Source: Paramacrobiotus metropolitanus | Taxonomy: Eukaryota; Tardigrada; Eutardigrada; Parachela; Macrobiotidae | Direction: 5' to 3' | Assembly (NCBI RefSeq): GCF_019649055.1 | Contig: NW_026570229.1 | Coordinates: 1,364,001-1,428,000, forward strand | Length of the DNA stretch: 64,000 nucleotides | Shown: positions 56,189 to 64,000 of the stretch, piece by piece | Position numbering within the stretch: position 1 is the first letter of the stretch | Layout: the number at the start of each line of letters is the position of its first letter | Position numbers and translations under genes: made by a program | The notes under the pieces: generated by a model | What the model saw: only the letters and a program-made list of their open reading frames with translations | What the model was told of the DNA's origin: nothing | Database searches by the model: none

Positions 56189-57481
56189 ATTTTACAAGCT
56201 TGGTATATTACTCGCTAAGTGTATTTGAAGAGGGGAATGTTAAAGTTTGTGTCTGCTAAAAGCGTAACACTTTGCATATTTGCGCAACATCTAAAGTCTA
56301 AACTGCTCCACAAAATCATCTTTCGAAATCAAAGAAGTGGACACCCAACGACTGGACTGCGGTGTATCTGAATGGCGGCCACCGCGGTCTACCATTCCTT
56401 ATTCCGGCTGAGATTGTCATTACGTTATAAAGCGCGTTTAGGAAAGACACCAATTATGTGCAGTTGTGCATAGATTAGTTAAATGAAACCATGCAATTAT
56501 GCGGCTGTAAACGAAATGGATTATGCAATATTCAAATTTCCAGAAACCACTAATTAAAAGCTAATTATCTGGTGCATGATATTCACGCTCATCTTGTACT
56601 GAGATACGTGCATCAATTATAATATTTTAAAACGCAGTGGAACGGATGCCATTATAGTAGGCTGACGTCAGTTCTGACTCGATCCACGAGCAAATCGAAG
56701 GAAACTTTCTTTCTAATTAATCGAGGTGACCGCGCGTTTTTCTGATAGATCATGAACCGTTTCCAACTTCTAGACCTGCTTCATAGTGTTAAGAAAAAAT
56801 GCAATTGCTGTGCCGTATCACGTACAGTCTGTACGTGAGAATTTCTTGTAATTGCAGTGGACTACAGGTACGAATTCATCTCATTTCTCAATCCCCTTTC
56901 CCAGTTAACATTTTCTACCAATTCGATGTTAATGCAAACCGAGGCCGGAGGCCGAGGTTTGTAGCAATAAGGACGATACGCCGTCGTCAAAGAATAGTTG
57001 CATAATAATTTCATCACAGGAAGATGAGGTATGAGCTGTCGTTTAATCTTCTTACAATTATTATGCAATTTTATACAATTATAATACCATTACATACAAT
57101 TACAATGGACGTCAAAATTGATTTGACATCGGACCGTTAGCCGCTGTCGGCTTCAGCGCTTGCGATGGAGCTTCGCATATCCATCACCATAGCCGCTTAC
57201 TGAGCAGCAAGCGCGACAGCTGTTCTGTCTCTGCTCTTTAATTCAGTTGCGTAACATGGATAAATCCGCAAAACCGATTCAATGGCAAAAACAATTATCA
57301 CAGTTATGGTTTCTGACAGGGTAAGAATTAGGATTAACACGTCAGCAAGCAGAAGGGAGGCAGTCAAGCAGCCAACGTCTTTGTCCAGACAGATATCCGA
57401 TGAACCCGGTTTAATTTGCTGCAGGTAATATATAAAGAGTTACTTACCTAACAGACACCAGCATATTATCAGTTGTTCAAA
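56189..57481. other. Intergenic; no gene seen
   Basis: No recognisable protein. A TATA-like AATATATAAAGAG at about 57426-57438 lies 45 bases before the ATG of the next gene. Confidence 0.45.
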
Positions 57482-58912
57482 ATGCTTAATTTGCTGGCCA
57501 ACAACATTTCCAACATCACAACTGCTCATGCGGCCGCCAGTATCGGGTGGGTCGATCATTTCGCCGCCGTTCTGGTTCCACTGGAAACCGTCTATCTCGT
57601 TGCCGTCGTTAGCGTGTACCTGTCCAGTGAGCGGCTGCGAAAGGCCTTTAATGTCTACCTCATCAGTATTCTGCTGTGTCATATAGCGAAGTTCACGCTG
57701 AGGAGCGCCACGGTCATCCACATGCAGATCACCGGGCATCCCGTGGAAACCAGCGTGGCCTGGTGTGCCACACGGATTCTGTGGTTGTGGATCGGTGATG
57801 CGCTGGCCGCTTCCGTACACATTCTCTTAGCACTTAGCCGCATCTGGGCGGTAACCTTTCCCATCTCCTACCGCCAGCGCCACACGCAGCGAGCAGCCAT
57901 TGTGGCATGTATCGCCATGCTGGTGGTGGTGTGCGCAACGCGTCTGCCGCATTTCATTCTGACCATTATCCAGCGTGTAGGCGAAAATGGCAAGGTGTGC
58001 TTCATGCCGGTGCATGTGTACCCCGTGTATCTCGCTGCCATTCGATATATCTCCATTGCCAGCTTGTTTATTGTGTTTGGAGCGTTGCCCTATGTGATCG
58101 TGATGCGGCAGGTTAAAAAGAGACGCGTTAAACCGGGTTCTCTTGGTAAGGCACCTAAACTTACTTAGCTTTGTCTAATGCCACACTGACAATTCGCTGA
58201 CCGCCATCCTGCTAACTGCCAATTTGCTGGCGACTTTGCTGAACGACGACCCGACGGTTTGTTGAAGCGACAAATCGCTGACCGAGATCTCGCTGAATAA
58301 CGTTTTGTGAACACCAACAACTTGCTGACGACATTTTTCTGATCTGAGAAACCCAGCAAACTTAAGAAATCTAAGAAAACTAAGAGACCTAAGATACCTA
58401 ACCCCAAGAAACCAACGAAAAAGCAACAAGAAGTTAAGAAAACTCACAAATCAACGTATCCAACAAAAAAGCAAGTTGTCGGTCAACAAAAGCGTTTCGG
58501 TAAAACGTCGGTCAACAATTTAGCAGAAAAGCAAATTGCCGACCAGCGAACTGTAGGTCGGCTAATTAACATGCTACCATGTCGAATGCACAGTCGCTGT
58601 TGCAAACCTACGTAGTAACAGGGGGTTTTCTTTGTAGATGTCCCTGGCAGTCGCAAACCGCGTCCACTCAGCGCCGGCAAGAACGCTGTTTTCTGTATCT
58701 CTTCTATGATCAGCCTGGTCATCTGGGGATTCGCCTTGGGTGTCAGGAATTTCTTTCCGCATTCGCGAATGCTAATGGAGATCAGCCAGTTATTTGGCAG
58801 TCTCGACTGCATTCTGAATGCTACCGTCTTCGTCATTTGCGCTCCATTAACCAGAAAGGTTTTCTTGGCCAAAATAAAAGAAATTTGTCTAAGTAAAAGC
58901 TGCGCGGGATAG
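57482..58912 (+). CDS. Class A orphan G-protein-coupled receptor, two exons
   Basis: Exons 57482-58145 and 58638-58912 join in phase 1 (G/AT, giving Asp); 312 residues. Exon 1 has a short N-terminus with NNISNIT sequons and TM1-TM5, with LSRIWAVTFPISYRQRHT at the end of TM3 in place of DRY, and ECL cysteines in AWCATR and KVCFMP. Exon 2 has TM6 (VFCISSMISLVIWGFAL, without CWxP) and TM7 (LDCILNATVFVI, without NPxxY), then a basic tail. Related to the receptor at 39212, but with an intron in ICL3 that the other lacks. The intron contains low-complexity TTGCTGAC and AAGAAATCTAAG words. Confidence 0.78.
58146..58637 (+). other. Intron of the GPCR gene with low-complexity repeats
   Basis: Opens GTAAGGC and closes TTTGTAG. 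58190-58345 repeats TTGCTGAC-like words and 58350-58440 is an AAGAAATCTAAG tract. 58470-58510 carries GTCGGTCAACAA twice. Confidence 0.6.
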
Positions 58913-60619: not shown

Positions 60620-63600
60620 ATGATCTTGAAACTATCGGTATCAACAACTGTTATGAGCTTTCATCTTGGTTTGTACATTTATTTGGTGCACGTCTGGTGT
60701 CAAGAACACATGGAAGATGTTTTTCGGGATGATTTTGAGACCATCAACTGGGAAAGGTGGACAGAGGAAGAAGCTTACTCCTACTACCCTGTATATTATG
60801 ATAACAGGACCCTGTTCGCCCGTTAAGGTTTACTGACAATGAAGCCGTTAGGCGAACAGTATGGTAACCATTTTGCGTTAGCAACGAGGAACTTCACTTT
60901 CAAGTACGGCGAGATGATCATACGGCTAAAGTACCCCAGCTGCCAGTCCAAAAACGACCCACGGAGATACACGTTGTCCTTTGTGTCCTTGTCCCCCGTC
61001 AGCGAGGAGGAGTCGCTCTCGACCATCCCCAGACCTCAACTATGGGTTCATTTCTCGACATACCCATCGACCTGCTATCGGTTGCGGGGTTACTTAGACT
61101 ACATTTCAGCATCCGGTCAGCGTATCGGCGGGAGCAAGCTGTTTGACAGGTGACCTTTGATTTATAGGGGTGTTATGCAAAATCGCAAAGTCTTCTTCGA
61201 CGGTTTTCGCATTCCGAACCTTTAACGATATAGATTCGCGCACCGGACACTAAAAGACAGGGAAATCTGGCAAGAACGCTTTAATGATGACAAGAACGTT
61301 TTAAAATTAATTAGGTGATAATTATTGTTTATAAATAACCTTGTACATAAGCTTGTACACCAGATTAATAATAAATTAATAAGTTATCAAGAATAAATAG
61401 AGATTAATAAGTTACGAATTAAAAAATTATCAATTGCATCGTCGAAGAATGCAAATTGCAGCGATGCGGACTTGGCACTGGACTACCACGTTCATCGTCT
61501 TAGCTGGACGCCGGAAGCCCTGGAGTGGTACATGGATGGCAATCGCCTATTCAACTTCACCGTTCCCGAACACACTACCTTGCCGGAAATGCGCGTAAGA
61601 ATAAGGGTTGCGCCTGATTATCGGGAATTCACTCAAAAGGATGAAGACGACTACAATTATAATTTTCTCTATAAACGTCCAAACTGGAATTCATCGCATT
61701 ATCAAATGTCGGACGAATTCTTGATCGATTATGTGGTGATTCGCCAACTTTTCAGTAGTCAAGCAGGCAAAAGTAAGGCAGCACTGAGGATCGTAAACAG
61801 AAAATTTATTGGTTGGCTTTACAGACAAACTGCAGCCAGTATTGGCAACTGTTCTTCCATTAGTGGTAACAGTTTTGGCGGCTTTGGCTTATTTTCTAAT
61901 ACGGCGTAGACGACGGAATCGTCTGTTTGGCGCTCGGCAAATGAGCAAAATGCAGACCACTGGCGCAACGGCCAGCGACTCTGCACCACCACCGGATCTT
62001 AACACCGACGTCGTCCATTTAGTGGAGAATGACCATGTTCGAGCGCTGGAAATCCCGCTGACCAATCTGCATATTTGTAAGTCGCACATTTGCGCGAACA
62101 AGCACATTTATTCGAATTAAGGTGCTGCGGATGCATGCCTACTGGATGTGCTCCTAGTCCACACTGCTAGTTATTATGAAATTGTTAAACTGCGGCCGAC
62201 TACAAGGGTCTCACTTTTTTGTCCTTCTATCTAAGTATCCACCATGACAGCATGCGCACAAATGTATGTCTGCCAATACTACGTATAATTATTATATCGG
62301 TCTTCTTGATGAGCATGATTCAGTATCACATCGTTGTGTTTTCCGCTGCAGCCAACATTATTCTTGGACGCGGCACGACTAGCATCGTGAGAAAAGGGGT
62401 GGCCCAGGACCTTCTCGGTCAAGACCAGACCAGTGCCGCCGTAAAGAGCGCCAGGGACCGTAGCGCTTCCACTGAGACGCGACAGTTAATGCAGGAAATA
62501 GAAGTTATGCTAGCGGTTGGTCAGCATCCTAACATCATCGACCTGTTGGGTGTGGTTATGATCGGTAACGCGGTCTGTTGACTGTTCAGTGTCGTTTATG
62601 ATTCGGAAGAATCTATGATACATCGAACTTTATGGAATCACTGCAGGTGAAGTGCTTCTTGTACTGGAATATGCCCGATTTGGTAGCCTTCGGGATTTCT
62701 TGAAAACTTACCGTGCCGGCATTTACCATCATGTCAGCCGTAACGCCATACCTCCCTTATGACGAAGAAGAAGCGGAACGTGCCGTTTGCTCCGCCGATG
62801 GAACGATATCTCGAGCGGACTTAGATGAACTGAATGGACAAATCTTGTCAACCACTATGCTGCTGCAGTTTTCTTATCAGATCAGTCGAGGAATGGAACA
62901 TCTCAGTACTCTGGGCATTGTGCACCGCGATTTAGCCGCGCGAAATGATCTGATTTGCGATGGATTCACGGCGAAGATATCGGACTTCGGCATAGCACGG
63001 CAAGAAAATCGCGATCGCTTTCCGGAATTAAAAGTACGAAACTGTTTTAGCACCAGGCATAGTTTTGCACTCTAGGCTGGAATTTGGAATTCGCATTACC
63101 AGCACGTACGTAATACGAACAAATACAGTATAATATTACTAGGAAACTGCACGGCTGTTCGCTAGCACTGAAAGACCGAACCGAAAATACAAATATTGAG
63201 AGAAGTGTCTACAGATAATTTTTTTATCTGCTTGTGATCCTGCATCTGTGGCTAATATTTTTTTACTTTAGTAATTTCATAATAGGTCCACAGAATCTCA
63301 ACAAATCAGGAACGTTCCGGTCAGAACTGACCGGAAGTTCAGAAAGCATCTGTCACGCTCTACCAAATTGTACATTTATCCTCAAATTCATAAAATACAT
63401 TCTATATACCTATCTTAATAAATGTTTGTTTACATCAAAAACGGCATCGGTGGATTTTTGCCTCGAGTTTTCAACTGCATAAAGTCAACCACTTAAACAA
63501 AATAAAAAAAAAGTAATATGTATATTTTGTAATAAAAGAATTAAAATGTCAAAGGGCTGTATATTTAATTTTTATCACATAAAACATATTCGATTTTATT

Positions 63601-63835
63601 TAACCTTGCAGGAAGCTTTTCCAGTGCGCTGGATGCCACCGGAAGCCATGGCTAAAAAAATATTCTCAGAGAAATCGGATGTGTGGTCCTTCGGTGTTGT
63701 TATGTGGGAAGTGTTTAGTGTTGGAGCGCTGCCGTTTACTGACGATCGCATTGCGCAGGACAATATCGCCACTTTTCTAGCGTCACTAAAAAGCGGATTG
63801 CGTCTGGACAAGCCGGAGCACTGTCCAACTGTCGT
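60620..63835 (+). CDS. Receptor tyrosine kinase with a GH16-fold extracellular domain, 3' end beyond window
   Basis: Exons 60620-61149, 61462-61772, 61825-62076, 62352-62564, 62647-63033 and 63612-63835; phases chain correctly. Order: signal peptide ([10 protein letters not shown]); GH16/laminarinase-like sandwich ([44 protein letters not shown]); one transmembrane helix ([17 protein letters not shown]) and RRRRR stop-transfer; then the kinase: [36 protein letters not shown], a Kit/FGFR-like insert, [21 protein letters not shown] and [14 protein letters not shown]. The GH16 catalytic box ExDxxE is replaced by YLDYIS, so it should bind rather than cut glycans. Two defects: an in-frame TAA at 60824-60826, and one extra base near 62750 (a CCC run). 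A GT donor at 63836 shows the gene continues. Confidence 0.75.
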
Positions 63836-64000
63836 GTAAGTTTTGTCGGTAACTTGCTCGTGATAGTCGCATTTCTACCTGCACATACCTCGGTATCAGA
63901 AAGAATAAGCCGACCGATGTGATCAACAAAATAATTCTTTAATTGGCGTAGAGCGCGTCTACAGAGGGTTATTCAGCCAAGTGTGGACACTTTTTGGAAA
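63836..64000 (+). other. Partial intron of the kinase gene at the window edge
   Basis: Starts GTAAGT after a split codon. The last coding exon, with the kinase C-lobe end, is not certain within the window; an AG at about 63979 could start it. Confidence 0.5.

What the first reader, a model, noticed from the sequence alone, without database searches (positions are those of the whole stretch)
60620..63835. GH16-fold ectodomain joined to a tyrosine kinase: a candidate glycan-sensing receptor kinase
Seen: a signal peptide, a GH16-like domain with N- and C-terminal hallmarks ([24 protein letters not shown]), one transmembrane helix and a kinase with all catalytic motifs, linked by introns whose phases all match. 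Known: GH16 enzymes cut beta-glucans using two Glu in ExDxxE; in arthropods, inactive GH16 relatives act as beta-glucan recognition proteins. Inference: loss of both Glu (here YLDYIS) turned the domain into a ligand-binding head on a receptor kinase, coupling polysaccharide sensing directly to tyrosine phosphorylation. I do not know of a described receptor kinase with this architecture.
Basis: partly seen in the sequence, partly recalled or inferred. Interest (0 to 1): 0.9.

Follow-up and report, generated by a model that had tools for sequence, protein, structure and literature searches.

The report
Tardigrade sugar-enzyme-headed receptor tyrosine kinase
Water bears carry dozens of likely cell-surface tyrosine kinases whose outer part resembles a sugar-cutting enzyme that has lost its active site, so they look like sensors built from a dead enzyme; the copy in this window is one of them, but it is damaged in this assembly.

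Summary
The window is from the tardigrade Paramacrobiotus metropolitanus. Missed: an in-frame stop in the head (60824-60826) and a frame change in the kinase insert, so this copy is not intact as assembled; the gene runs past the window; and YLDYIS is not the catalytic site, although both catalytic Glu are gone. The fusion is not a one-off: 49 of 66 GH16-like loci in this genome have a kinase close downstream, and 20 annotated proteins of three tardigrade genera carry both domains. None of the 17 receptor heads judged keeps the catalytic motif. A soluble tardigrade GH16 with an intact site lies between bacterial enzymes and the heads. Related tardigrade kinases carry lectin, PGRP, PAN, LRR, astacin, trypsin and GH45 heads. 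Best reading: a tardigrade receptor kinase family whose dead-enzyme heads bind ligands, probably glycans. Ligand and immune role are untested. No paper describing it was found.

The parts
60620..61149 (+). Exon 1: signal peptide-like N-terminus (by eye) and N-terminal half of the GH16-fold head
   Evidence: aligned with P0284, P0165 and P0001 heads; hhalign to GH16; no Pfam hit on its own
60824..60826 (+). In-frame TAA stop inside exon 1 (lesion or assembly error)
61462..61772 (+). Exon 2: C-terminal half of the GH16-fold head
   Evidence: Pfam GH16 E 2e-4, 21.2 bits; 58 places in the own genome found with it at E<=1
61825..62076 (+). Exon 3: transmembrane helix (about 61836-61901, by eye), basic run, juxtamembrane part ending [10 protein letters not shown]
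   Evidence: same layout in L006 and L010
62352..62564 (+). Exon 4: kinase glycine loop and catalytic Lys (AAVK)
   Evidence: PK_Tyr E 8e-10
62647..63033 (+). Exon 5: kinase hinge, insert, HRDLAARN and DFG; frame changes within the insert, roughly 62740-62760
63612..63835 (+). Exon 6: kinase C-lobe (VRWMPPE, SDVWSFG), then a GTAAGT donor; the last exon lies outside the window at L002:4262-4388
   Evidence: PK_Tyr E 3e-20
63909..63986 (.). Left end of a 1.2-kb insertion-like element in the last intron: 53-base direct repeat and 28-base perfect inverted repeat (other ends at L002:4107-4194)

Best explanation
The locus belongs to a tardigrade family of receptor tyrosine kinases whose extracellular part is a catalytically dead GH16 (laminarinase-type) domain. 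The head came from a secreted GH16 enzyme like the one with an intact site still in the genome (L003), lost the catalytic Glu pair and kept the beta-jelly-roll as a ligand-binding module. Ligand binding, most likely a beta-glucan or related glycan or glycoprotein, would bring receptors together and start trans-phosphorylation by the FGFR/VEGFR/PDGFR-like kinase. The genes multiplied in clusters and diverged, and other heads (lectins, PGRP, astacin, trypsin, GH45, LRR, PAN) sit on kinases of the same clade. Shown: architecture, family, loss of the motif, clade. Inferred: binding, signalling, any role in sensing microbes or food. This window copy is damaged as assembled: a recent pseudogene or assembly errors.
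For: 49 of 66 GH16-like loci have a same-strand kinase hit within 6 kb downstream; density-based chance 0.002 per locus; 7 of 66 upstream and 14 of 66 on the other strand. In L006 head, membrane helix and juxtamembrane part are one exon and the kinase exon follows after 71 bases. 20 annotated proteins with Pfam GH16 plus kinase: 13 Paramacrobiotus, 4 Hypsibius, 3 Ramazzottius; none outside tardigrades in the best 120 rows shown of 280, 5404 and 7946. L006 head: PDB laminarinases E 2e-36; model pLDDT 87, Foldseek to 4dfs E 1e-24. Catalytic motif absent in 18 of 18 tardigrade rows judged of 19 aligned, 17 of them receptors, and in P0284 and the window. L003 reads WPPEIDVMEFRGD where P0001 reads WPPAVSVIDIKGD, without gaps. 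Bacterial GH16 against heads and L003: 99/98. Tardigrade kinases against 10 Ig-type receptors: 100/100; 95 SH-aLRT in the quick 56-row tree. Titles show laminarinases with one Glu mutated (E269S, E154A) crystallised with laminari-oligosaccharides, so such a dead site can still hold glucan.
Against: No binding, expression or signalling data. The window subclade lost WPP beside the old site, Pfam finds no GH16 in its annotated paralogue P0284 at E<=0.001, and the window head branch is long (2.0 against 0.7 in P0284). The full-length P0165 model is moderate (pLDDT 75, pTM 0.51) and its fold search returned only kinases in the 50 rows shown. Some members have HFG for DFG (5 of the 10 loci judged of 44, and P0165) or HCD (P0004, P0136), so not all kinases need be active. 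17 of 66 GH16-like loci have no kinase hit within 6 kb.
Confidence: 0.6

Rival explanations
1. The heads are receptors for self ligands (protein or endogenous glycan) in development or moulting and no longer bind microbial or food glycans; the GH16 fold serves only as a scaffold.
For: Nearest solved kinases are growth-factor receptor kinases. The window subclade lost WPP beside the old site. Kinases of the same clade carry unrelated heads.
Against: Many copies in clusters and a fast-diverging head fit outward recognition better than one fixed developmental ligand; several alternative heads belong to families known (recalled) for carbohydrate or peptidoglycan binding.
Confidence: 0.25
2. The window copy is a recent pseudogene: the family is real, but this gene makes no receptor. 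(Compatible with the best explanation, so the odds do not add up to one.)
For: An in-frame stop and a frame change; a long head branch; an insertion-like element in the last intron.
Against: The kinase tip branch is not long (0.51 against 0.63 in P0284); pN 0.23-0.26 against pS 0.71-0.73 with L025 and L027 over 224 codons, both lineages included; all splice sites are present. A study of this species reports a single-base misassembly causing a frame shift in another gene (PMC11191345, passages).
Confidence: 0.5
3. The receptors sense food (algal or fungal wall glucans) in gut or mouth rather than pathogens.
For: Laminarinase-type ancestry and a soluble GH16 with intact site in the same genome.
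Against: PGRP and lectin heads on kinases of the same kind fit microbe recognition at least as well. No expression data.
Confidence: 0.2
4. Two neighbouring genes wrongly read as one (GH16 gene plus kinase gene).
For: Only genome sequence and automatic gene models were seen; no transcript could be read.
Against: A 52-base intron between head and membrane exons here; one exon from head to juxtamembrane part in L006 and L010; the same order at 46 distinct kinase places and in annotated proteins of three genera.
Confidence: 0.03

Closest known systems
Arthropod GNBP / beta-1,3-glucan recognition proteins (recalled; GNBP role in passages of PMC7056985)
   Same: GH16-like fold without the catalytic Glu pair (recalled), proposed glucan recognition
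   Different: GNBPs are secreted, act upstream of Toll and carry an N-terminal CBM39 (recalled); here no such domain was hit and the head sits on a membrane tyrosine kinase. Mapalo et al. report no GNBP1/3 homologue in their samples. No GNBP sequence was compared here
FGFR / VEGFR / PDGFR / FLT3 / KIT receptor tyrosine kinases
   Same: Kinase with insert, HRDLAARN, single membrane helix; best PDB matches
   Different: No Ig domains listed; kinase outside the 10 sampled Ig-type receptors with 100/100. Database names such as FGFR4-like rest on the kinase
Venus kinase receptors (search listing and start of abstracts only)
   Same: Invertebrate receptor tyrosine kinases with an unusual ligand-binding head
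   Different: Venus flytrap head and insulin-receptor-like kinase
Plant L-type lectin receptor kinases (recalled; listing and abstracts)
   Same: Jelly-roll lectin head (recalled) on a membrane kinase, large family; plants also have B-lectin, PAN and LRR heads (recalled)
   Different: Plant kinases of unrelated origin (recalled); convergent at most
Bacterial GH16 laminarinases (4dfs, 3azx)
   Same: Head fold and sequence (32% identity, for L006)
   Different: Enzymes with GEIDIME; receptors lack it

Membership tests
Receptor tyrosine kinase | Tyrosine kinase domain with Lys, [11 protein letters not shown] | tested here: met
   for the window; 20 of 23 rows (22 proteins plus window) have HRD and DFG intact, exceptions P0004, P0136, P0165
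Receptor tyrosine kinase | Signal peptide, extracellular domain, single membrane helix | tested here: met
   Helix and basic run read from sequence; helix 268-304 in the P0165 model. Signal peptide judged by eye, no predictor run
Receptor tyrosine kinase | Ligand-induced phosphorylation | not testable with these tools
   Needs protein
GH16 fold | Homology to GH16 domain | tested here: met
   hhalign 98.7% for the window subclade; Pfam below cut-off for exon 2 and no Pfam hit in P0284
Active GH16 enzyme | ExDxxE catalytic motif | tested here: not met
   only L003 of 52 fetched loci matches the motif pattern (some loci overlap)
GNBP / beta-GRP | GH16-like domain without catalytic Glu (definition recalled) | tested here: met
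GNBP / beta-GRP | N-terminal CBM39 and secreted protein (definition recalled) | tested here: not met
   No such Pfam hit in the window exons, L006, L010, P0138, P0284; membrane helix present
FGFR/VEGFR/PDGFR-type (annotated name) | Ig-domain ectodomain and kinase inside that clade | tested here: not met
   No Ig family listed for the GH16 receptors; kinases apart from 10 Ig-type receptors with 100/100
Pattern-recognition receptor | Binds a microbial pattern and triggers defence | not testable with these tools
   No binding or expression data

The most novel reading that the evidence does not exclude
Tardigrades evolved their own animal counterpart of the plant receptor-kinase immune system: one receptor tyrosine kinase chassis with exchangeable heads, many of them dead enzymes (GH16, GH45, trypsin, astacin) or carbohydrate and peptidoglycan binders (C-type lectin, B-lectin, PGRP), reading microbes straight into tyrosine phosphorylation in animals reported to lack parts of the Toll and Imd pathways.
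Probability: 0.35. Interest if true: 0.93.

Novelty: new variant of a known kind. Interest (0 to 1): 0.82.

Why it matters
Mapalo 2020 (PMC7056985, passages) detected no Relish homologue in tardigrades and no GNBP1/3 or PGRP-SA/SD homologue in any sample, and asked whether tardigrades have novel immune mechanisms; note that Yoshida 2017 (PMC5531438, passages) lists a relish-like family with 5 copies in each of two tardigrades, so that point is disputed. Dozens of dead-glucanase receptor kinases, with related receptors bearing PGRP and lectin heads, are a concrete, testable candidate. The case also shows enzymes recruited as likely ligand-binding heads of receptor tyrosine kinases, with an enzyme of the ancestral type still in the genome. 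Database names hide this: of the 20 proteins with both domains, 14 are named after a growth-factor-type receptor and 6 are uncharacterized or hypothetical.

Tried and rejected
Rejected: a one-off fusion or chance ORF. Rejected: two neighbouring genes. Rejected: the annotated receptor classes FGFR/VEGFR as family membership. Rejected: YLDYIS as remnant of ExDxxE. Not resolved: whether the GH16 head came to tardigrades from bacteria; named non-tardigrade rows among the 120 listed are bacterial, but no arthropod GNBP or other animal GH16 was in hand for a tree. A first script to list kinase motifs had a faulty pattern and found 0 of 44; the corrected one found 10 of 44, most others probably having that exon outside the fetched 3 kb. 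The fold search with full-length P0165 returned only kinases in the 50 rows shown, so the head of that subclade was not tested by fold search; the head search used L006. The second kinase tree left out 15 rows of the first: P0004, P0137, P0151, P0155, P0157, P0236, P0177, P0126, P0238, P0242, P0140, P0161, P0245, P0220, P0204; P0202 had dropped out because its HRD pattern was not found; P0241 was in neither.

Full report
What is there. The window is G000:C9:1364001-1428000 of a 169.8-Mb, 533-contig genome. Annotated proteins on contigs of exactly the lengths of C154, C53 and C9 are from Paramacrobiotus metropolitanus, a eutardigrade. The plus-strand gene has six exons in the window and a seventh beyond it. 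Exons 1 and 2 encode the head, exon 3 the membrane helix and juxtamembrane part, exons 4 to 7 the kinase. The junctions before the glycine loop (phase 1), after exon 4 (phase 1), between exons 5 and 6 (phase 0) and after exon 6 (phase 2) match those of the relative L006, worked out from the exon lengths and the donors.

Damage. Exon 1 has an in-frame TAA at 60824-60826 where the relatives aligned read through, and exon 5 changes frame in the kinase insert. The rest looks constrained: pN 0.23-0.26 against pS 0.71-0.73 with paralogues L025 and L027 over 224 kinase codons, a pairwise measure that includes the paralogue's own branch, and a kinase tip branch no longer than that of P0284 (0.51 against 0.63). 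The head tip branch is long (2.0 against 0.7). Either the lesions are recent or they are assembly errors; a study of this species describes a single-base misassembly with a frame shift in another gene (PMC11191345, passages). I saw no reads.

The head. Exon 2 alone hits Pfam GH16 just under the cut-off, exon 1 hits nothing, and Pfam finds no GH16 in the annotated paralogue P0284. Profile comparison of the window, P0284 and P0165 heads is more sensitive: 98.7% to bacterial GH16, 99.9% to better-preserved receptor heads. The single-exon head of L006 matches PDB laminarinases at E 2e-36; its model (pLDDT 87) matches 4dfs at E 1e-24. Of 19 tardigrade GH16 rows aligned, P0133 starts after the site, so 18 were judged; none has the motif; 17 of the 18 are receptors, P0003 has no kinase. 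Where L003 reads WPPEIDVMEFRGD the receptor P0001 reads WPPAVSVIDIKGD, without gaps: nucleophile Glu to Ala, acid/base Glu to Asp (roles recalled). The window reads [10 protein letters not shown] there; YLDYIS lies further on.

The family. Exon 2 gave 58 places (E<=1) and Pfam GH16 54 places (E<=0.1) in the own genome, merged to 66 loci. 49 of 66 have a kinase hit (of 101 places at E<=1e-6 found with exon 5, 150 of 189 candidates scored) within 6 kb downstream on the same strand; 46 distinct kinase places. Controls: upstream 7 of 66, opposite strand 14 of 66, chance 0.002 per locus. At least some control hits come from clusters such as those on C98, C7, C9, C516 and C6. Counts are rough: weak hits are included, a gene with two head domains can count twice, 17 loci have no kinase hit. 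In the protein database, 43 tardigrade kinase proteins appear among the best 120 rows (of 5404 and 7946); 20 have Pfam GH16: 13 Paramacrobiotus, 4 Hypsibius exemplaris, 3 Ramazzottius varieornatus; P0284 is a further one by homology. No row outside tardigrades in those lists has both domains; deeper rows were not seen.

One chassis, many heads. The lists also hold tardigrade kinases with astacin, C-type lectin, B-lectin, PAN, LRR, trypsin, GH45 and PGRP-type heads (domain order checked). In a tree of 41 kinases the 31 tardigrade rows separate from 10 Ig-type receptors with 100/100 and the window joins P0284 with 100/98. The nine labels, Ig-type included, need 10 changes; 8 is the least possible and shuffles average 21, so heads are clustered, but starred branches force 5 changes for GH16, 2 for astacin and 2 for LRR. 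Astacin heads sit at two places, one next to the window's own branch. A quick tree of 56 rows gives the same split (95 SH-aLRT) and 15 changes, least possible 11. The root was set on the Ig-type rows, and ordinary tardigrade receptor kinases were not sampled. Against solved structures the GH45 head has NFN where the enzyme has HFD, the trypsin head TAEC and GDGGGP for AAHC and GDSGGP, the astacin head of P0129 RELMH and YNE for HELNH and YHE (catalytic roles recalled). P0130's astacin motif looks intact by eye, so enzyme death is not universal. The PGRP head of P0126 matches PGRP-I-alpha at E 1e-30; that model holds two head-membrane-kinase units and may be two genes run together.

Origin. In a tree of 40 GH16 domains the 18 bacterial rows are one clade (99/98). 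L003, the soluble tardigrade protein with intact site, lies on the bacterial side of the branch (83/97) that holds 20 of the 21 receptor-type rows (one of them P0003, without kinase); the long row P0257 also falls outside. Its highest identity is 46%, to P0002. This fits an enzyme turned receptor head. Whether the enzyme came from bacteria is open.

Mechanism. Shown: architecture, dead site, kinase residues. Inferred: the head binds a glycan, receptors pair, the kinase trans-phosphorylates. By analogy, laminarinases with one mutated Glu were crystallised with laminari-oligosaccharides (titles). Against: the window subclade has lost WPP, and some members have HFG for DFG (5 of the 10 loci judged; P0165), suggesting partners without activity.

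Prior work. Tardigrade with receptor tyrosine kinase and GH16: 0 papers; with lectin: 2, unrelated by title; searches listed nothing that describes the family, by titles and starts of abstracts of the rows shown. Mapalo 2020 (passages) reports no GNBP1/3 or PGRP-SA/SD homologue in any sample, no Relish in any tardigrade, and PGRP homologues only in eutardigrades except one species. Yoshida 2017 (passages) mentions 27 tardigrade-only kinase clusters, without their heads in the passages seen, and, against Mapalo, a relish-like family with 5 copies in each of two tardigrades. The holozoan kinome paper (PMC8662651, passages) contains neither Hypsibius nor Ramazzottius. Most subscription papers and all preprints are outside the library, so absence is limited to these searches.

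Noticed in passing
L002:5158-7265 (contig C9, minus strand, just beyond the window): A minus-strand relative with GH16-like head, membrane helix and kinase reading HRDLWAAN and SEFG, likely with altered catalysis. Two more plus-strand places follow at C9:1434018 and C9:1437458.
   Followed up: partly
L024, L030, L034, L036, L042 and P0165: A subset of GH16 receptors has HFG in place of DFG, suggesting catalytically poor partner receptors.
   Followed up: partly
L003:760-1860: Secreted-looking GH16 protein, two exons, intact site WPPEIDVMEFRGD, no kinase: a likely active tardigrade glucanase related to the receptor heads.
   Followed up: yes
P0126; separately C63:786612-786842: P0126 (628,312-base contig): PGRP-type domain, membrane helix and kinase, two units in one gene model. 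In the own genome Amidase_2 gave 2 places; the one on C63 is below cut-off, has a stop inside, and has a kinase hit 1 kb downstream. Whether it is the same gene was not checked.
   Followed up: partly
P0181, P0239 (Hypsibius), P0129 (Paramacrobiotus): GH45, trypsin and astacin heads on kinases of the same clade, each with altered catalytic residues.
   Followed up: partly
window 63909-63986 and L002:4107-4194: 1.2-kb element in the last intron bounded by 28-base perfect inverted repeats and 53-base direct repeats (92% alike).
   Followed up: no
window 57452-58168 and about 58620-58910: Open frames that by eye resemble parts of a seven-helix receptor upstream of the gene.
   Followed up: no
P0004 (contig C136): Annotated receptor with repeated kinase segments (HCDLAARN three times): gene model artefact or exon duplication.
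   Followed up: no
P0003 (contig of C25's length): Two GH16 domains and a membrane helix, no kinase: possible decoy or co-receptor.
   Followed up: no
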